IMG/VR virus record: IMGVR_UViG_3300043773_001187
Location: 1-20,099 of that record
Origin: a virus
Length of the DNA stretch: 20,099 bases
Direction: 5' to 3' (one strand)
In this document: positions 2,952 through 15,271 of the stretch, piece by piece
Position numbering within the stretch: the first letter of the stretch is position 1
How the letters are laid out: each line of letters starts with the position of its first letter
Notes under the pieces: model-generated
What the model saw: only the letters and a program-made list of their open reading frames with translations
Database searches by the model: none
Told to the model about the DNA's origin: nothing
Position numbers and translations under genes: made by a program

Positions 2952-2984
2952 AAATAGTTTAAAATTATTTTTGCAAATTGGTGC

Positions 2985-3012
2985 TTTGTATTGTTTTTTG
3001 GCTTATCTTTGT
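2985..3012 (+). promoter_or_regulatory. Repeated early promoter, copy A
   Basis: TTTG (2985-2988) and TATCTTTG (3004-3011) are separated by 15 nt and lie 29 nt before ATG 3041. The 28-base block is almost identical to 3860-3887 and 5724-5751, and with its upstream flank it forms a 54-bp repeat (2959-3012). The boxes match the Bacteroidota -33/-7 elements, though the spacing is slightly short. Confidence 0.75.
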
Positions 3013-3040
3013 TTCACACTTAACCACTAAAGCAATCACA

Positions 3041-3826: not shown

Positions 3827-3859
3827 AATTATTTTAAAACTATTTTTGCAAACTAGTAT

Positions 3860-3887
3860 TTTGTATTGTTTTTTGCCTTATCTTTGT
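3860..3887 (+). promoter_or_regulatory. Repeated early promoter, copy B
   Basis: TTTG (3860-3863) and TATCTTTG (3879-3886) with 15 nt between, 22 nt before ATG 3909. With its flank (3834-3887) it matches 2959-3012 at 48 of 54 positions. Confidence 0.75.
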
Positions 3888-3908
3888 CAGACACTAAACC
3901 AATAAGCA

Positions 3909-4142
3909 ATGAGCAAGCAACTATTTGAACAGCAACAAGAACTGACTATGATTAACCAAAGCAACCTACCGTATGGCTTTAATGAGGAACGGTATTACAA
4001 GGAAGTAAACACCCAGCAAAGCCGAGCCTTTAGGGTAACACCTAGCAAGCCGTTAACCGATGCTGAACGCATAGCACAAGGTGAAGCATTTGCGATTATT
4101 GACGAATACGACAGGCGTAACAGGGGGCAGCAGTTCCAATGA
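3909..4142 (+). CDS. Hypothetical protein (77 aa)
   Basis: Starts MSKQLFEQQQELTM and ends RRNRGQQFQ. It is charged and Gln-rich with no membrane segment and is not recognised. The residues TDAERIAQGEAFAIIDEYDRR (about 50-70) look like an amphipathic helix. It is the first gene after promoter copy B, with the leader GACACTAAACCAATAAGC before the ATG. Its TGA overlaps the start of the NinB-like gene (ATGA), so it may be a small partner of that protein or simply a coupled cistron. Confidence 0.6.
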   Translation: MSKQLFEQQQELTMINQSNLPYGFNEERYYKEVNTQQSRAFRVTPSKPLTDAERIAQGEAFAIIDEYDRRNRGQQFQ

Positions 4143-4579
4143 AAAACATTAAGATGCCGTGCGAGGTGGTTAACGGGGCTATCCAAGTAAACAGGATAGC
4201 CCTAGACCGCCAAGTGAAATCCTTAAAAGATGGTTTGTACACAATAGCCATTGAACCCGTAACGGACACAATTAGCCACCAACAACGGAAATACTTTTTC
4301 GGGGTTGTAATTTCGGATTTACAGTCGGGATTTGCAAACAAAGGCATAGCGGTAAGCGTTCAAGAGTTACGCACGTTATTAGAAACGCTGTTTATATTTC
4401 GTGAGGAATATAGCCCTATACTAGACACCACGCTAAAAGCCCGTATAAGCCTTTCTAATAGCCCCAAAGGGATAAGCAAAGAGGAATTTAACACGATTAA
4501 AAACGCCATTCAGCAACACGCTGCAACGGAATGGGACATTTACGTTCACGACCCTAACGAACCGATATTTAAGGAGTAA
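4139..4579 (+). CDS. NinB/Orf-like recombination protein (tentative)
   Basis: 146 aa. The order of segments, DGLYTIAIEPVTDTISHQQRK (31-51) with an aromatic YFFGVVISDL, then a middle helix and a C-terminal KEEFNTIKNAIQQHAATEWDIYVHDPNEP (115-142), resembles phage proteins annotated as NinB or recombination mediators (lambda Orf type), which begin with an R-S-x-x-Q-N-R/K-Y-like motif and end with a helix and D-P-N-E. Lambda Orf binds single-stranded DNA and SSB and helps load the annealing protein. The position after SSB-like and ERF genes fits. The resemblance is of pattern, so an unrelated conserved phage protein remains possible. Confidence 0.45.
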   Translation: MKNIKMPCEVVNGAIQVNRIALDRQVKSLKDGLYTIAIEPVTDTISHQQRKYFFGVVISDLQSGFANKGIAVSVQELRTLLETLFIFREEYSPILDTTLKARISLSNSPKGISKEEFNTIKNAIQQHAATEWDIYVHDPNEPIFKE

Positions 4580-4660
4580 TAATTTGGCGGTATCAAAGTA
4601 AAGTATTATTTTTACCCCCGACAGCTTATTACGTTCTTTCCCAAGACACATTTAAGATAA

Positions 4661-4718
4661 TGCCCATAACGGATTAGTGCGTTTCCTTGAACGTAGTAAG
4701 TTGTCACCGTTATGGGCA
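4661..4718. repeat. Perfect 12-bp inverted repeat TGCCCATAACGG / CCGTTATGGGCA
   Basis: The arms lie at 4661-4672 and 4707-4718 and enclose 34 nt. That loop can itself form a small CGTT/AACG hairpin. No T tract follows, so it is not a standard terminator; an RNA structure or a binding site for a dimeric protein is likelier. Confidence 0.6.
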
Positions 4719-4948
4719 AATATATTATAGCCAGTTCCGAACCGCCTACTGGTAGCTAGTGACACAATCTAGCATACAAAAAGGCGTGATACTGCGATAC
4801 TATATTTACTAGTGGTTAATCTAGGCAACGATGACAACTTGCGACCTAGCCCTGCATACAACCGATATGCCATTAGTAAACTAAAGTAGCCATGCAAGGG
4901 TGGTGAGTACGTTAGGTATCTTTATAGGCAGTGTTTAAATAAAGCCTA

Positions 4949-5001
4949 TGCAACCTACATACTGTATTTAGTTTCAAATTGTTTGACTAGGTAGGTATGC
5001 A
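4949..5001. repeat. Imperfect inverted repeat in the non-coding region
   Basis: TGCAACCTAC (4949-4958) is complementary to GTAGGTATGCA (4991-5001) with a single bulged base. The stem is adjacent to the ATAGGC/GCCTAT hairpin (4924-4949), giving two consecutive stems just before the nuclease gene. Confidence 0.45.
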
Positions 5002-5037
5002 GGGGAAAAGTTGGTATGCCCTTACATGAATACTTAG

Positions 5038-5045
5038 TATCTTTA
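5038..5045 (+). promoter_or_regulatory. Possible promoter -7 box TATCTTTA
   Basis: TATCTTTA differs from TATCTTTG in the last base only; TTG at 5011-5013 could be the -33 element, 24 nt upstream. The ATG at 5050 follows by 4 nt, which would leave almost no leader, so either the transcript is leaderless or this is not the promoter. Confidence 0.3.
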
Positions 5046-5049
5046 GTCA

Positions 5050-5358
5050 ATGAAGCAAAGCCCACAGATAGCACTCTATTGTTTATGGCTCAAATCTAAG
5101 TCAGTTGACTACGTTCTAGAGTCAACCTTCCACCCTACCCGTAAATGGCGAGCCGATATGGCAATACCTAGCTTAAACGTGCTTATCGAATTTGAAGGAA
5201 TAATGGCAACCAAATCAAGACATACAAGTGTAACAGGCTTTACAAACGATTGCGAAAAGTACAACCAAGCGCAATTACTAGGTTGGAAGGTACTACGCTA
5301 CACGGTAATAAACAAGGCGCAATTTTTTACGGATATTGAAAGCCTAATCAATGCCTGA
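5050..5358 (+). CDS. PD-(D/E)XK-like phage endonuclease (VRR-NUC/Vsr-like fold)
   Basis: 102 aa. The pattern FHPTRKWRADMAIP (27-40), VLIEFEG (44-50), SRHTSVTGFTNDCEKYNQA (56-74) and GWKVLRYT (78-85) is that of small phage nucleases with a restriction-endonuclease-like core: Asp36 and Glu47/Glu49 are the likely metal ligands, and Lys70 and the R-H-T segment are typical of the group. Such proteins are often predicted to act as Holliday-junction or structure-specific nucleases, matching the recombination genes upstream. The last 8 nt overlap the HNH gene. The family is clear by pattern; the DNA substrate is inferred. Confidence 0.7.
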   Translation: MKQSPQIALYCLWLKSKSVDYVLESTFHPTRKWRADMAIPSLNVLIEFEGIMATKSRHTSVTGFTNDCEKYNQAQLLGWKVLRYTVINKAQFFTDIESLINA

Positions 5359-5686
5359 TAACCCTAGACCATTTACGCCAGTACCCAAGCCCGAACCGAA
5401 AGCCAAAGCAAAAGCCAAGCCGATTAAAGCACGTTCAGCTAAACGGGCAAAAGACGACAGGGTATATTTAAAGCTACGCAGTGAGTATTTAGCTAACAAC
5501 CCCCTATGCGAAGCTAGGCTAATGAAATGCACGGGGGTAAGCACCGAAATTCACCACACGCACTCAGGCACTGACCGCAACAAGTATTATCTAATCACTC
5601 CGACTTGGTTAGCCGTTTGCAGGAACTGCCACAACGAGATACACGACAACCCGAAACAGGCTAAAACATTAGGGTATTTAAAGTAG
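5351..5686 (+). CDS. HNH endonuclease
   Basis: 111 aa. A basic, low-complexity N-terminus (KPEPKAKAKAKPIKARSAKRAK, about 13-34) precedes the HNH core: C53, C60, the HH pair at 68-69 (EIHHTHSG), C90-x-x-C93 and H94-N95-x-x-H98 (CRNCHNEIH). The two cysteine pairs form the structural zinc site and the histidines with Asn form the beta-beta-alpha-metal nuclease. Free-standing HNH proteins of this size in phages either nick DNA during packaging or act in recombination; here it lies beside another nuclease and far from the terminase. It starts inside the end of the previous gene. Confidence 0.85.
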   Translation: MPDNPRPFTPVPKPEPKAKAKAKPIKARSAKRAKDDRVYLKLRSEYLANNPLCEARLMKCTGVSTEIHHTHSGTDRNKYYLITPTWLAVCRNCHNEIHDNPKQAKTLGYLK

Positions 5687-5723
5687 CCTAAAATAATTTT
5701 AAAAAAGTTTTAGAAAAAGATAC

Positions 5724-5751
5724 TTTGTATTGTTTTTTGGTTTATCTTTGT
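5724..5751 (+). promoter_or_regulatory. Repeated early promoter, copy C
   Basis: TTTG (5724-5727) and TATCTTTG (5743-5750) with the same 15-nt spacing as copies A and B; only two bases between the boxes differ from copy A or B. It lies 37 nt before ATG 5788 in the gap after the HNH gene. Confidence 0.75.
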
Positions 5752-5787
5752 CGTATAGTTATTCAGTTACCAATAAACAAACCAAAA

Positions 5788-7637: not shown

Positions 7638-7735
7638 CTCGCAAAAACGTAACCATAGTATCTAAGAAAAACTTATAGCCCTTTTGTAGCCGACCCTTTT
7701 GCGAGAAGGAGAAGCGCAAGAGGGCTTCTTATTTT
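7638..7735 (+). terminator. Two-hairpin non-coding element before the replication block
   Basis: CTCGCAAAA (7638-7646) is perfectly complementary to TTTTGCGAG (7697-7705), 9 bp closing a 50-nt loop. Directly after it AGAAGC (7710-7715) pairs with GCTTCT (7724-7729), followed by TATTTTT, a terminator-like end. The whole gene-free gap is 7605-7736. It could be a small structured RNA ending in a terminator, or an attenuator for the replication genes, since the T tract runs into the ATG at 7737. Confidence 0.45.
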
Positions 7736-7736
7736 T

Positions 7737-8273
7737 ATGTACGACCCAGATTTAGAAAGGCGACCATTTCCTTTAGATACAATTGAATTTTTGTATGTAA
7801 CATCACATCTAGACGCCACACAATTAGGCGGTTTTATAAAATTGCTATGTTTTTCGTGGGCAAATAAAAGACTTCCTTTAGACCATAAATCACTAAAAAG
7901 ATTATCTGGACTACCGTCATCAAAATTTAATGACGTTATCTTAATGTTTACCAAGAATGCTATATCTTATAAATATGCCCCTATGGAAGAAGTAAGGGCA
8001 GATATGGATAAGCCTGTTTATGTTTATATAGCTATCCACAAAGAAAATCGTACTTATAAGATAGGCGCAAGTAGGGATATTTGGAAACGTGAGATTGCAC
8101 TTAGAGGTAAAAAACAAAACGTAAAGATGCTTTATTATTTTGAAGGTGGATTTGCAAAAGAGGCTGAATTACATAGATACTTCGCAACAAAAAGAATAGA
8201 CGGTGAATGGTTTAATCTTGATGAAGATGATTTATCCTATATTTTATCTAACCATGAAATTATGGAGGCTTAA
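7737..8273 (+). CDS. DUF1376-like N-terminus fused to a GIY-YIG (T5orf172/Mug113) domain
   Basis: 178 aa. Residues 9-65 (RPFPLDTIEFLYVTSHLDATQLGGFIKLLCFSW..LPLDHKSLKRLSGLP) resemble the winged-helix-like DUF1376 domain of phage replication proteins. Residues 94-170 form a GIY-YIG-type domain of the T5orf172/Mug113 class: VYVYIAI (94-100), YKIGASRD (107-114), basic R118, EAELHRYF (142-149) and DGEWF (155-159). Such domains are DNA-cleaving. The fusion could be a replication protein with a nicking domain or a recent domain capture. It ends 2 nt before the initiator gene. Domain calls are by motif; the combined role is inferred. Confidence 0.65.
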   Translation: MYDPDLERRPFPLDTIEFLYVTSHLDATQLGGFIKLLCFSWANKRLPLDHKSLKRLSGLPSSKFNDVILMFTKNAISYKYAPMEEVRADMDKPVYVYIAIHKENRTYKIGASRDIWKREIALRGKKQNVKMLYYFEGGFAKEAELHRYFATKRIDGEWFNLDEDDLSYILSNHEIMEA

Positions 8274-8275
8274 TA

Positions 8276-9007
8276 ATGGCTAATAGAATTATCAATACTG
8301 AAATTTGGGACGACCTATTGGAAGTTTCTATTGAAACAAGGCTATACTATATTTACCTATACACTAGTTGCAACCATGCAGGGCTAATAAAGCCACAGAA
8401 AGCAATTATAAGCGTGTATTGTGGTAAAGTTGATATAGTTGCCATTGAAAAGGAATTGAGCGATTGTGGTTTAATTAAAAGGATTGATAACGGCAAACTT
8501 TTTTTACCTCAATTCATTAAAGCTAATTATAGAGATTTAGGTAATAATAATTCAAACGCTGCTAAAAGTTGTATTGCATTGTTAGCAGAAAATGGTATTA
8601 ACTATTTAACCCTTAATGAAGGGTTGATGAAGGGTTCATTAACCCTTATAGAAATAGATAAAGAAAAGGATAAGGACATAGATAAAGAAAAGGAAAATAA
8701 AACAGCCGAAATAAATTATCAATTTCCTGACAACTTTACAGACGACCATAAAAAACTTTGGTTTCAATATGAGCAAGTACGGGAGTCAATACCTAAACCA
8801 CCTTACTCACAGGCCACAAGGCAATTAGCCATAAACGAATTTGTTAGTAGTGCTAGTTGCGACGCTAAAAAATATACTGAAGGATTAAAAGCAAGTATTC
8901 AAGGTGCATGGGTAACGCCAAAATGGTTTGCACCTAAACAAAATAAGTACACACCCGAACAACCAACCAAATCAAGTTACGACCGCAAATTTAAAGGCTA
9001 TGAATAA
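8276..9007 (+). CDS. Phage replication initiator / helicase-loader protein
   Basis: 243 aa. The N-terminal 90 residues (MANRIINTEIWDDLLEVSIETRLYYIYLYTSCNHAGLI..) are typical of winged-helix replisome organisers in phages, which open with a W-x-D/x-L segment followed by a ten-residue helix and an N-x-x-G-L. A very charged linker (about 126-143, KEKDKDIDKEKENK) joins a C-terminal domain (about 149-233) like those that bind the helicase. Its last 8 nt overlap the dnaB start, which supports helicase loading. The linker-coding DNA and the heptamers before it form a likely origin, as in lambda O. Homology is by pattern; the specific family is not determined. Confidence 0.7.
   Translation: MANRIINTEIWDDLLEVSIETRLYYIYLYTSCNHAGLIKPQKAIISVYCGKVDIVAIEKELSDCGLIKRIDNGKLFLPQFIKANYRDLGNNNSNAAKSCIALLAENGINYLTLNEGLMKGSLTLIEIDKEKDKDIDKEKENKTAEINYQFPDNFTDDHKKLWFQYEQVRESIPKPPYSQATRQLAINEFVSSASCDAKKYTEGLKASIQGAWVTPKWFAPKQNKYTPEQPTKSSYDRKFKGYE
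8608..8720. other. Candidate replication origin: four phased heptamers plus A-rich tract
   Basis: AACCCTT or its complement AAGGGTT occurs at 8608, 8619, 8630 and 8641, exactly 11 bp apart, in the orientation + - - +. Directly downstream lies about 70 bp of almost pure purine, A-rich top strand, containing a 17-bp direct repeat (8654-8670 and 8678-8694). Iterons followed by an A/T-rich, strand-biased tract inside the initiator gene is the layout of the lambda origin in gene O. Confidence 0.55.
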
Positions 9008-11348
9008 TCTTTACGAAAAGCAAGTATTGGGCGCAATAGTGCAAAGCGATGAAAGCCTACCCGACCTAATGGCAATGGTGCATGAAGATATGTTCAGCAC
9101 AAGCGAGTACAAAGACATCTTTAGAAGTGCTAAGTACCTATACGACAGCGGCAGACAAGTAAATATAATTAGCATACTGACCCACAATAAAAAGCATGAC
9201 ATAATGAAGCTAACCGACGTAAGCGGTTCAATAGCTTCAACTGCTCACATAATGGATTGTGCTAAAATATTAGTGCAGGAATTTATAAGGCATGAAATTG
9301 TTTCGTTAGCTGCAAAGATTAGCAACATGGCACTAGCGCAAGATGACGTATTTGACATTTTAAACTACACAGGCACGACCGCTGGCAACTTAGAGCAAAC
9401 CATAAGCCCATCAACTATTGAGCACGTTAGCACGATTGTAAAGGAACAAGCCCTAAAACGTGAAAAGGTTACGGATATGGCTGGCATACCTACGGGCTTT
9501 AGGGAATTAGATAAATTGTTAGGGGGGTTTGGCGATGAGTGGTTGATAATTTTGGCAGCAAGACCCGGCATGGGAAAGTGTCTAGGTAAAGGCACTAAGG
9601 TTATAATGTTTGATGGCTCAATTAAAAACGTGGAAGATGTAGTAGTAGGCGATAAGCTAATGGGCGATGACTCGACACCTAGAAACGTATTATCTTTAGC
9701 AAGGGGGCGTGAGGAAATGTATTGGGTTAAGCAAAATAAGGGCATAGATTATCGTGTAAATAAAAGCCATATTTTGTCTTTGAAAAAAAGTAGGTCAGAT
9801 GGCTACCGTAGCAAAGGTGAAGTGCTTAATATTTCGGTAAGTGATTATCTAAACAAGTCGGATAAATTTAAATCTAACTACAAAGGCTATAAAGTAGCCG
9901 TTGAATTTGAACAAAAGACAGTTGGCATTGACCCGTATTATTTAGGCTTATGGCTTGGTGATGGAACGACAGTAAACCAAAACATAACAAATACCGACAA
10001 CGAGATTATAGAATATTTACAGAAGTATGCAGGTGAAATAGGCGGCACATTATCAACTAAAATTTATGGTGACAAAGCACCAACGCATAAAATTTTGGGG
10101 TGTAAAATGCAACAAGGATTAAGACAGTTGGGCGTTTTAGGATTCAAACACATACCTAATGACTACTTGATAAATTCAACCGAAAACAGATTAAAGTTAT
10201 TGGCAGGCTTGCTAGATACTGATGGCTATTACGATAAGGCAGCTAATGTATTTGAGATAACGCAAACAAAAGAACACTTAGCGAAGCAAATTAAATACTT
10301 ATGTGATTCACTTGGCTTTAGAACTAATTATAAAAGTAAGATTGCTACAATCAAATCAACTGGCTTTAAAGGTGAGGTATTTAGATTGCAAATATCGGGT
10401 GACTTGCATTTAATACCTACATTGGTTGAGCGCAAAAAAGCTAGGATTGGAAGTAATCAAAAAGACAATAAGGTTACGGGCATTAAAGTTGAATACGACA
10501 AAGTAGATGATTATTATGGGTTTGAAATTGATGGCAATAGGTTATTTCTTTTAGAGGATATGACCGTAACGCATAACACCAGCCTAATGCTATCTTTTGC
10601 GTACTACATAGCTAAACAAGGCTATGCGGTGGATATTTATTCAATGGAAATGAGCAAAGGACAGTTAACAGATAATTTGATTAGTATGCATTGTGGTGTT
10701 CCGCTTTGGAAGATACAGCGCAATAAAATGGAGCACTACGAATTAGAGCAAGTAAAGCAAGCCGAAACATACATAGCAAGCCTACCAATACACATAGACG
10801 ACCAAGCCCGTATAAAAGGCAGACAGATACGCAGCCGTATTGTGATGGGTAAAAAGAAGCGAAATACAGCGATTGTAATGGTCGATTACATACAAATCAT
10901 GGGAGAGGAAGGCAAAGGTAACAGAGAGCAAGAGATAAGCAATATAACGGGTAATTTAAAGGCTGCAGCAAAGGAAGCCAAGATACCCGTAATAGCATTA
11001 GCGCAATTGAGCCGAGAAGTGGAAAAGCGAGCCGACAGACGACCCCAACTAAGCGATTTAAGGGAGTCGGGCGCAATAGAGCAAGATGCGGATATTATTA
11101 TGTTTCCTTTTCGGGCTTGGTACTACCACACTACAGGCGTGGCAGGGTTTGAGTATAACGATAAAAACGAAAGCACCGAAAATTTAGGCGAGTTGCTGAT
11201 AGCTAAAAACAGGCATGGTATAGTAGGTGATATTGAGGTAGGATGGGAAGGTAGTAAAAAGCTATTTTACGACAAAGAGCAGGATTTCGAAATAAAGCCA
11301 TTATCTAAAATGCAGCGACCGAGTGAAGATGATTTTGACGTATTTTAA
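9000..11348 (+). CDS. dnaB: Replicative DNA helicase DnaB, intein-containing
   Basis: 782 aa precursor, 449 aa after removal of a 333-aa intein (residues 194-526), a normal length for phage DnaB. The N-terminal domain starts MNNLYEKQVLGAIVQSDESLPDLM. The RecA-like domain carries Walker A (ARPGMGK before the intein, TSLML after), Walker B VMVDYIQIMG, and LAQLSREVEKRADRRPQLSDLRESGAIEQDAD. It unwinds DNA 5' to 3' as a hexamer ahead of the fork. ATG 9000 overlaps the initiator stop and gives the canonical DnaB start; an in-frame ATG at 8928 would add 24 residues translated from the other gene's frame. The helicase cannot bind ATP until the intein is spliced out. Confidence 0.95.
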   Translation: MNNLYEKQVLGAIVQSDESLPDLMAMVHEDMFSTSEYKDIFRSAKYLYDSGRQVNIISILTHNKKHDIMKLTDVSGSIASTAHIMDCAKILVQEFIRHEIVSLAAKISNMALAQDDVFDILNYTGTTAGNLEQTISPSTIEHVSTIVKEQALKREKVTDMAGIPTGFRELDKLLGGFGDEWLIILAARPGMGKCLGKGTKVIMFDGSIKNVEDVVVGDKLMGDDSTPRNVLSLARGREEMYWVKQNKGIDYRVNKSHILSLKKSRSDGYRSKGEVLNISVSDYLNKSDKFKSNYKGYKVAVEFEQKTVGIDPYYLGLWLGDGTTVNQNITNTDNEIIEYLQKYAGEIGGTLSTKIYGDKAPTHKILGCKMQQGLRQLGVLGFKHIPNDYLINSTENRLKLLAGLLDTDGYYDKAANVFEITQTKEHLAKQIKYLCDSLGFRTNYKSKIATIKSTGFKGEVFRLQISGDLHLIPTLVERKKARIGSNQKDNKVTGIKVEYDKVDDYYGFEIDGNRLFLLEDMTVTHNTSLMLSFAYYIAKQGYAVDIYSMEMSKGQLTDNLISMHCGVPLWKIQRNKMEHYELEQVKQAETYIASLPIHIDDQARIKGRQIRSRIVMGKKKRNTAIVMVDYIQIMGEEGKGNREQEISNITGNLKAAAKEAKIPVIALAQLSREVEKRADRRPQLSDLRESGAIEQDADIIMFPFRAWYYHTTGVAGFEYNDKNESTENLGELLIAKNRHGIVGDIEVGWEGSKKLFYDKEQDFEIKPLSKMQRPSEDDFDVF
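9579..10577 (+). mobile_element. Intein with LAGLIDADG homing endonuclease in the DnaB P-loop
   Basis: 333 aa, in frame, inserted between Lys and Thr of the GMGK/TS Walker A motif. It begins with the nucleophile Cys1 (CLGKGTKVIMFDGS) and ends in the block G sequence THN before extein Thr. Block B is NKSH (61-64), with His64 present but Asn where Thr is usual. Block F is DYYGFEIDGNRLFLLED (311-327). Both endonuclease motifs are intact: LGLWLGDGT (122-130, Asp128) and LLAGLLDTDG (207-216, Asp213/Asp215). It should splice itself out post-translationally and home into intein-free dnaB alleles. Confidence 0.95.
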
Positions 11349-13780: not shown

Positions 13781-13987
13781 ATGAAAGGCAAGATAATAAT
13801 AGTACCTATAACAACCGTACGGGGTGAAACCTTTTATCTAGTCTATAAAACGCTAAAAAAGGCTTGTATTGAGCACGGGGTGAGTTACCACAGCGCAACA
13901 AGTTACTTTAACGGAAACCCTAATAAGGATAGGTACTTCCATAAGAAAACAAACATTACCTTTGTAAAGACTGAATTAATATCATGA
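13781..13987 (+). CDS. Hypothetical protein between terS and terL (68 aa)
   Basis: Starts MKGKIIIVPITTVRGETFYLVYKTLKKACIEHGVSYHSATSYF. The segment TLKKACIEHGVSYHSATSYF (about 24-43) has the A-x-x-x-G-V-S spacing of a helix-turn-helix, so DNA binding is possible. It is basic, not otherwise recognised, and overlaps the terL start by 4 nt (ATGA). Confidence 0.6.
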   Translation: MKGKIIIVPITTVRGETFYLVYKTLKKACIEHGVSYHSATSYFNGNPNKDRYFHKKTNITFVKTELIS

Positions 13988-15271
13988 AACTATCAATGAA
14001 GCAAACCCGCGCCCTCGACCTTTTAGAAGACTTGGAAACATCCGAGATTCTATTTGGTGGGGGCGCGGGCTGAATAAAAAAAAGGTGGCGGCAAGTCAGT
14101 ACTAGGTTGTTATTGGATAACAAAGAGTGCGTTAAAGTACAAGGGCACTAGGTGGTTAATCGGCAGGGCAAAGTTAAAGACCCTAAAGGAAACCACGCTA
14201 AACACCTTATTTGAGGTATTCAAGATACAAGGCGTTACGACAGCCATGTACAACTACAATCAAACCAGCGGTATAATACAGTTCAGTAACGGCAGCGAGA
14301 TATTACTCAAAGACTTGTTTTACTATCCAAGCGACCCTAACTATGATGAGTTGGGTTCATTAGAGATAACAGGGGCGTTTATGGATGAAGCCAACCAAAT
14401 GGTAAAGAAAGCCAAAGAGGTGGTAAAGAGTAGGATAAGATACAAATTAGACGATTATGGATTAATACCTAAACTCTTAATGACTTGCAACCCGTCTAAA
14501 AATTGGATTTACAAAGACTTTTACAAGCCATACACGGCAAACGAGTTACGCAGCGATTGGGCGTTTGTACCTTCATTGGTGCATGATAACCCCGACATCA
14601 GTAAACACTACCTAGACAACCTACAAAACATACAAGACAAAGCCACACGGGAACGCTTACTAGGTAATTGGGAGTACGATATGAACCCGTCAAGGTTAAT
14701 GCCTTACGATGCTTGTGCTGACCTATTTACGAATATCCATGTATTAGGTGGCACGAAATACATAACAGCGGATATTGCACGGTTCGGCAAAGATAAGACC
14801 GTAATAATTGTTTGGGACGGTTACAAAGCTATTGAGGTGGTGACGTACAAGACTAACACGATAACCGAAGCCGCTGGAAGGATAACCGATTTGGCAAAAC
14901 AATACTTGATACCGATGAGCCAAGTAGTATGCGATGAGGATGGTATCGGTGGCGGTGTGGTGGATATGCTACGCTGCAAAGGCTTTATAGCCAACAAGAC
15001 TAGCACGAAGTATGCCAACGCAAAAGCAGAATGTTATTACCTACTTGCGGAAAAGGTAAATAAAAGCGAACTTTACATTAATTGCAGCGAAGCGGAAACG
15101 ATAATACAGGAACTGCAAGCGATTGAACGGGCTAACATTGACAAAGACACGAAACCAAGCATAAACAGCAAAGACAGTCAAAAGCAGATATTAGGTCGCA
15201 GCCCCGATTATGCCGATGCCTTAATGATGCGCTTTTGGTTTGAAACTAACACGTTACAAATTTACTACTAA
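13984..15271 (+). CDS. terL: Terminase large subunit, reading frame interrupted in Walker A
   Basis: The first 29 codons (13984-14070) end SEILFGGGAG and meet TGA at 14071. The rest continues in another frame from GGT 14084: GGGKSVLGCYWITKSALKYKG.. to the TAA at 15269-15271. Walker B is FMDEAN, motif III follows in LLMTCNPSKNW, and the RNase-H-like nuclease has YITADIARFGKDKT, VVCDEDGIGGG and SPDYADALMMRFW, so the remainder looks fully functional. Removing 16 nt (14071-14086) gives FGGGAGGGKS, a normal P-loop. No frame crosses the site: frame 1 has TGA 14071 and frame 2 has TAA 14075. Either the gene is recoded (translational bypass), inactivated, or the sequence has an error. A product from ATG 14246 alone would lack Walker A. 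Confidence 0.85.
14006..14089 (+). other. Possible recoding site: GC hairpin, stop codon and 13-16 nt gap in terL
   Basis: CCCGCGCCC (14006-14014) is perfectly complementary to GGGCGCGGG (14061-14069), and the stem can extend by TCG against TGG with wobble pairs. Its 3' arm ends inside codon GGC 14068-14070, which is followed by TGA. The insert TGAATAAAAAAAA then separates it from GGT GGC GGC AAG TCA. A Gly codon before a stop and a synonymous Gly codon at the landing site recall the hop in T4 gene 60. The stem uses GC-rich codons unlike the surrounding genes. Confidence 0.4.

What the first reader, a model, noticed from the sequence alone, without database searches (positions are those of the whole stretch)
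4580..5049. 470-nt structured non-coding region in a gene-dense genome
It contains a perfect 12-bp inverted repeat with a 34-nt loop, two further stems, and four copies of GCATAC/GTATGC arranged as two in each orientation. A TATCTTTA box at 4917 could start a transcript of about 120 nt through the last two stems. None of this fits a terminator. Candidates are a structured regulatory RNA, a decoy RNA, an anti-host RNA, a second origin, or an attachment site.
Basis: partly seen in the sequence, partly recalled or inferred. Interest (0 to 1): 0.6.

Follow-up and report, generated by a model that had tools for sequence, protein, structure and literature searches.

The report
Orphan structured RNA in phage slot
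A phage of Bacteroidota-type bacteria seems to carry, at a spot where its relatives keep swappable accessory genes, a roughly 400-letter non-coding stretch that folds strongly as RNA and resembles nothing found so far; it may be an RNA aimed at the host, but only one copy is known and no function has been shown.

Summary
4580-5049 is non-coding and the 12-bp perfect inverted repeat (4661-4672/4707-4718) is exact. Five strong helices lie in the region against 0.44 expected (0 of 400 shuffles); fold z is -3.15 on the + strand, -1.59 on the - strand. A sigmaA-like promoter would start a transcript at about 4619, one base before the long helix.

The region fills a variable slot: seven relatives with the same flanking genes carry a DUF559 nuclease, a Tad4 (Thoeris inhibitor) domain protein, a helicase-methyltransferase, small ORFs or nothing. 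One (L002) keeps both ends (56 and 57 nt, 100%) around a DUF559 gene; those ends pair with the window's own middle (0 of 400 shuffled middles), so the RNA is probably one unit whose middle L002 lost.

No relative of the middle was found in the collections searched, so covariation is untested. Best reading: an orphan structured phage RNA of an accessory, probably counter-defence, slot. The function is inference.

The parts
4580..5049 (+). non-coding region; candidate RNA gene with its promoter
   Evidence: no coding frame; fold z -3.15 on + strand, 0 of 200 shuffles; five helices of score 24 or more, 0 of 400 shuffles
4580..4635 (+). left end shared at 100% with relative L002
4583..4614 (+). 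sigmaA-like promoter TTTG-N20-TATTTTTA; predicted start about 4619
   Evidence: pattern itself at chance level in the window; box position -12 to -5 from PMC9723704; inferred
4620..4636 (+). arm A of the 17-bp helix
   Evidence: -23.4 kcal/mol with A'
4661..4672 (+). arm B of the 12-bp perfect helix
   Evidence: -20.8 kcal/mol with B'
4689..4705 (+). arm A', pairs with A; alternative partner at 4827-4845
4707..4718 (+). arm B', pairs with B; with A:A' an interleaved pseudoknot module 4620-4718
   Evidence: 4619-4720 alone z -3.83, 0 of 200
4636..4990 (+). unique middle, no relative found
4805..4880 (+). helix C:C' (4805-4816/4869-4880)
   Evidence: -13.5 kcal/mol; segment 4796-4900 not significant alone (z -0.98)
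4827..4845 (+). segment A'', alternative partner of A' and B'
4850..5004 (+). helix D:D' (4850-4859/4995-5004), 10 bp perfect; D' competes with a local hairpin
4991..5047 (+). right end shared at 100% with relative L002

Best explanation
A single-copy gene for a structured non-coding RNA of roughly 390-430 nt on the + strand, starting at about 4619 and opening with a 17-bp/12-bp interleaved (pseudoknot) module, in a variable accessory slot of a Bacteroidota-type phage. Shown: non-coding, more structured than chance, better on the + strand, slot variable, ends kept in one relative, ends pair with the unique middle. Inferred: it is transcribed as a discrete RNA, the pseudoknot forms, and it acts in trans as a decoy or inhibitor of a host (defence) RNA-binding system, as the proteins found in the same slot of relatives suggest. 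I put about 0.7 on a functional structured RNA and about 0.3 on the counter-defence role; the confidence given is for an RNA gene with some trans-acting role.
For: Helix count and strength beyond 400 shuffles; fold energy 0 of 200 shuffles on the + strand and lowest of 21 + strand windows; 4619-4720 alone z -3.83; ends kept at 100% in L002 pair with the window's middle, 0 of 400 shuffled middles; slot of relatives holds a Tad4-domain protein, a DUF559 nuclease and a helicase-methyltransferase; promoter-like site placing the start at the first base pair.
Against: Only one sequence known, so no covariation; the promoter pattern is not enriched in the window; no terminator so the 3' end is undefined; the 3' half is not significantly structured by itself; the - strand also has four strong helices and one other window, on the - strand, has a lower z; no host RNA or defence RNA resembles it.
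Confidence: 0.5

Rival explanations
1. A cis-acting leader: the RNA is the 5' untranslated part of the transcript into the 5050-5358 nuclease-like gene, and the mutually exclusive pairings of A' (with A or with A'') switch processing or expression downstream.
For: No terminator between 4620 and 5050; A' has two possible partners; in the relatives L009, L012 and L013 a terminator-like hairpin stands just before the same gene, so its transcription is controlled at this place.
Against: The downstream gene has its own TATCTTTA box at 5038, also seen in L009, L011, L012 and L013; the other six relatives keep the gene without the RNA; the pseudoknot module lies over 330 nt from the start codon.
Confidence: 0.18
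2. A DNA element (origin, attachment, packaging or protein-binding site) whose inverted repeats act as DNA.
For: Inverted repeats, and paired GCATAC/GTATGC copies with a 14-nt near-repeat at the right end kept in L002.
Against: Interleaved arms do not make a simple cruciform; the two mismatches of A:A' as DNA are both G-U pairs in + strand RNA; the fold favours one strand; no clear skew turn at 4501-5500 in 500-nt steps; six of the seven relatives lack the ends and all seven lack the middle.
Confidence: 0.12
3. A spacer without function: debris of gene exchange in the slot, with inverted repeats made by copying errors (for instance inverted copying of the ends).
For: Only one phage has it; the slot turns over quickly; the segments tested between 4796 and 5012 are near chance.
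Against: Five strong helices against 0.44 expected; two separate long helices in the first 100 nt; ends and middle pair at three places; a gene-dense genome rarely keeps 470 nt of spacer (next largest gap 258 nt).
Confidence: 0.2

Closest known systems
GOLLD and ROOL RNAs (PMC12286853, passages seen)
   Same: Large structured RNAs with pseudoknots encoded by phages; function unknown.
   Different: No Rfam match here; about 400 nt rather than about 660 to over 800; no tRNA in the window.
Racr RNA anti-CRISPRs (PMC10651486, abstract and outline seen)
   Same: Phage non-coding RNA, often found among other anti-CRISPR genes; acts by mimicry.
   Different: Racrs are single CRISPR repeat units; no match to any of 395 Bacteroidota genomes at E 1e-4, so no repeat likeness was seen, though the host is not known.
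Pseudo-ToxI of phage PhiTE (PMC3475682, abstract seen)
   Same: Phage RNA that mimics the RNA antitoxin (ToxI, an RNA pseudoknot per the abstract of PMC5772629 in the listing) and disarms a host suicide system.
   Different: Made of repeats; no tandem repeat in 4500-5100, and the module here is about 100 nt.

Membership tests
GOLLD / ROOL / any Rfam 15 family (group I and II introns, tmRNA, riboswitches included) | match to the family's covariance model | tested here: not met
   0 matches at gathering score in the window; 0 matches up to E 5 in 4400-5200
GOLLD / ROOL | often near a tRNA island | tested here: not met
   no tRNA in the 20,099-base window; the phage genome outside the window is not held
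Racr | solitary unit resembling a host CRISPR repeat | tested here: inconclusive
   no DNA match in 395 Bacteroidota genomes at E 1e-4; host unknown
Racr | inhibits a CRISPR-Cas complex | not testable with these tools
   needs an assay
Type III antitoxin RNA (ToxI) mimic | tandem repeat of the antitoxin unit | tested here: not met
   no tandem repeat at score 30 in 4500-5100
structured RNA (general) | compensatory base changes among homologues | not tested
   no homologue of the middle found
structured RNA (general) | folding beyond shuffled sequence | tested here: met

The most novel reading that the evidence does not exclude
A previously unseen class of phage counter-defence RNA: a large pseudoknotted RNA that is exchanged with protein inhibitors and nucleases (Tad4-domain protein, DUF559 nuclease, helicase-methyltransferase) in the same slot and disarms a host system by binding it.
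Probability: 0.2. Interest if true: 0.8.

Novelty: new member of a known kind. Interest (0 to 1): 0.42.

Why it matters
Few phage RNAs that act against host defence are known, and the two named here (Racr, pseudo-ToxI) resemble a host RNA. A structured RNA in a slot otherwise used by probable counter-defence proteins would give a way to find such RNAs by position rather than by likeness. The case can be tested with one cloned 470-nt fragment. If it fails, it is one more unexplained structured spacer.

Tried and rejected
Coding gene or decayed gene: rejected on reading-frame scores. Known RNA family: none (also none in L002/L089). tRNA/tmRNA: none.

Homologue searches that led nowhere: phages (only a 24-nt match in 26 Staphylococcus phages, E 2 in the rows shown), plasmids, 30 and 50 phage records, viral contigs patterns, 4 and 395 Bacteroidota genomes, covariance model R1 built from this one sequence (two rows differing by one end base) in 78 sources, 48 records and 296 genomes. 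Single short hits looked at and dropped as chance: L097 (20 nt at 95%), L184 (19 nt, in what reads like a gene), L242 (E 2.5; reads like the start of a gene), L258 (21 nt, inside a 780-aa ORF). The other pattern hits (L098, L100-L103, L256, L257, L259-L261) showed no similarity beyond the pattern at the thresholds.

Another structured gap, L246:3487-4015 in a relative, holds terminator-like hairpins and is, as far as I can see, unrelated.

The 4917 promoter and 120-nt transcript: not favoured. Second origin: no positive evidence.

The name NinB that I used in a note for the upstream gene is recalled and not supported: Pfam and NCBIfam gave no such match, PHROGs only an unnamed family. The 'PD-(D/E)XK' label for the downstream gene is likewise recalled; searches give only phrog_503 (unknown) and weak nuclease matches.

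Full report
What is there. The window is a 20,099-base virus record with densely packed genes. 4580-5049 lies between a 146-aa gene of unknown family (4139-4579; one weak PHROG match of unknown function) and a 102-aa gene (5050-5358) that matches phrog_503 (unknown function) and, weakly, a homing-endonuclease family. It is the largest gap between the genes I listed (next 258 nt). No frame scores as coding on average. There is no tRNA, no Rfam match, no tandem repeat and no terminator-like site in 4300-5400.

Structure. The strongest helix was missed: 4620-4636 with 4689-4705, 17 consecutive pairs, the two non-Watson-Crick ones being G-U on the + strand. The order of arms is A (4620-4636), B (4661-4672), A' (4689-4705), B' (4707-4718), so the two helices can coexist only as a pseudoknot, with linkers of 24, 16 and 1 nt (read from the coordinates). 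Duplex energies are -23.4 and -20.8 kcal/mol. The folding program does not draw pseudoknots: it picks A:A' in the 470-nt fold and B:B' in the fold from 4619. That the two form together is inference. A second interleaved pair, C:C' (4805-4816/4869-4880) and D:D' (4850-4859/4995-5004), is possible but weaker, because D' also fits a local hairpin. A' and B' have a third possible partner at 4827-4845.

Is it more than chance? In 300 dinucleotide shuffles neither the best nor the second-best helix is reached. Five helices of score 24 or more are found against a mean of 0.435 (0 of 400). The fold energy is z -3.15 on the + strand (0 of 200) and -1.59 on the - strand (9 of 150). Of 20 other windows per strand, the lowest + value is -1.84 and the lowest - value is -3.72, at 7681. 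Cut out alone, 4619-4720 gives z -3.83 (0 of 200) and 4720-4800 z -2.12 (5 of 200), while the three segments tested between 4796 and 5012 are not significant: -0.98, +0.23, -1.46. The - strand, too, has four helices of score 24 or more, so the strand call rests on the fold energy and the G-U pairs.

Transcription. In Flavobacterium psychrophilum the sigmaA box TAnnTTTG lies at -12 to -5 (PMC9723704, passages). TATTTTTA at 4607-4614 with TTTG 20 nt upstream would put the start at about 4619, one base before arm A. This pattern is not enriched in the window (8 against 5.85 expected), so only the coincidence of place speaks for it. The 4917 box lacks the upstream element.

The slot. Seven loci hold relatives of both flanking genes. 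Between them are: a DUF559 nuclease gene (L002; Pfam 9.6e-20); a 70-aa ORF (L003 and L004, which give the same matches); a 214-aa protein with a Tad4 Thoeris-inhibitor domain (L005; 3.2e-23); nothing (L006); a 103-aa ORF and a 716-aa helicase-methyltransferase-like protein (L007); three ORFs (L008). This is a variable accessory slot with probable counter-defence content; none of these functions was tested.

The relative that kept the ends. L002 shares the first 56 nt and the last 57 nt of the region at 100%. The neighbouring sequence is also close (79 of 80 columns from 4536 and 155 of 160 from 4991), so the two phages exchanged or inherited this stretch recently. L002's middle is the DUF559 gene with a leader. 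The kept ends hold arm A (but for its last base) and arm D'. In the window these ends pair with the middle; with the middle shuffled, the top, second and top-three pairings are not reached in 400 trials. In L002 the best end-to-middle pairing scores 21.4 against 37.6 in the window. I infer that the RNA was the earlier state and that L002 lost its middle to the nuclease gene. A caution: pairing of ends and middle would also follow if the middle arose by inverted copying of the ends.

Homologues. None of the middle: phages and plasmids, 30 and 50 phage records, five viral-contig patterns of which two lie in the ends, 399 Bacteroidota-search genomes (4, 395), and a one-sequence covariance model in 78 sources, 48 records and 296 genomes. 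The DNA search found the shared ends in L002's record, so it can detect such matches. Metagenome contigs could not be scanned. Covariation is therefore untested, and this is the main weakness.

Reading. A structured RNA gene is the best account. A trans-acting role against the host is inferred from the slot. Known phage RNAs with such roles are the Racrs (PMC10651486, abstract and outline) and pseudo-ToxI (PMC3475682, abstract and outline); GOLLD and ROOL are large phage RNAs of unknown function (PMC12286853, passages). None fits as a family. Paper searches on phage non-coding RNA with pseudoknots, ROOL/GOLLD, Racr, Tad4, type III toxin-antitoxin escape and Bacteroidetes phage RNA showed no such element in the rows listed; the library holds open-licence papers only and no preprints.

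Noticed in passing
13985-14245 and 14246-15271: The large terminase seems broken near its start: a short frame from 13985 stops near 14072 beside an A run, and the terminase-like ORF begins at 14246, matching its profile only from position 72 (sequence). It may be a frameshift, an insert or a sequencing error.
   Followed up: no
8928-11348: The DnaB-like helicase ORF of 806 aa appears to hold an intein (read from the translation); 7 of 296 Bacteroidota-search genomes have matches of similar length, 42-49% identical.
   Followed up: partly
1134-1212, 2952-3030, 3827-3905, 5691-5769: Four copies of a 79-nt intergenic repeat (68-84% to the reference copy) end in TATCTTTG before a gene: a repeated promoter cassette.
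   Followed up: partly
7681-8150, - strand; hairpin at about 7690-7735: The lowest fold z of the sampled windows (-3.72, 25 shuffles); a terminator-like hairpin stands directly before the start codon at 7737 (sequence).
   Followed up: no
L005:3454-4098: 214-aa protein in the same slot whose C-terminal half matches Tad4, a type I Thoeris inhibitor (Pfam 3.2e-23), fused to an unassigned N-terminal part.
   Followed up: no
L002:3557-3612: The DUF559 gene of L002 is preceded by a terminator-like hairpin with a T run directly before its start codon.
   Followed up: no
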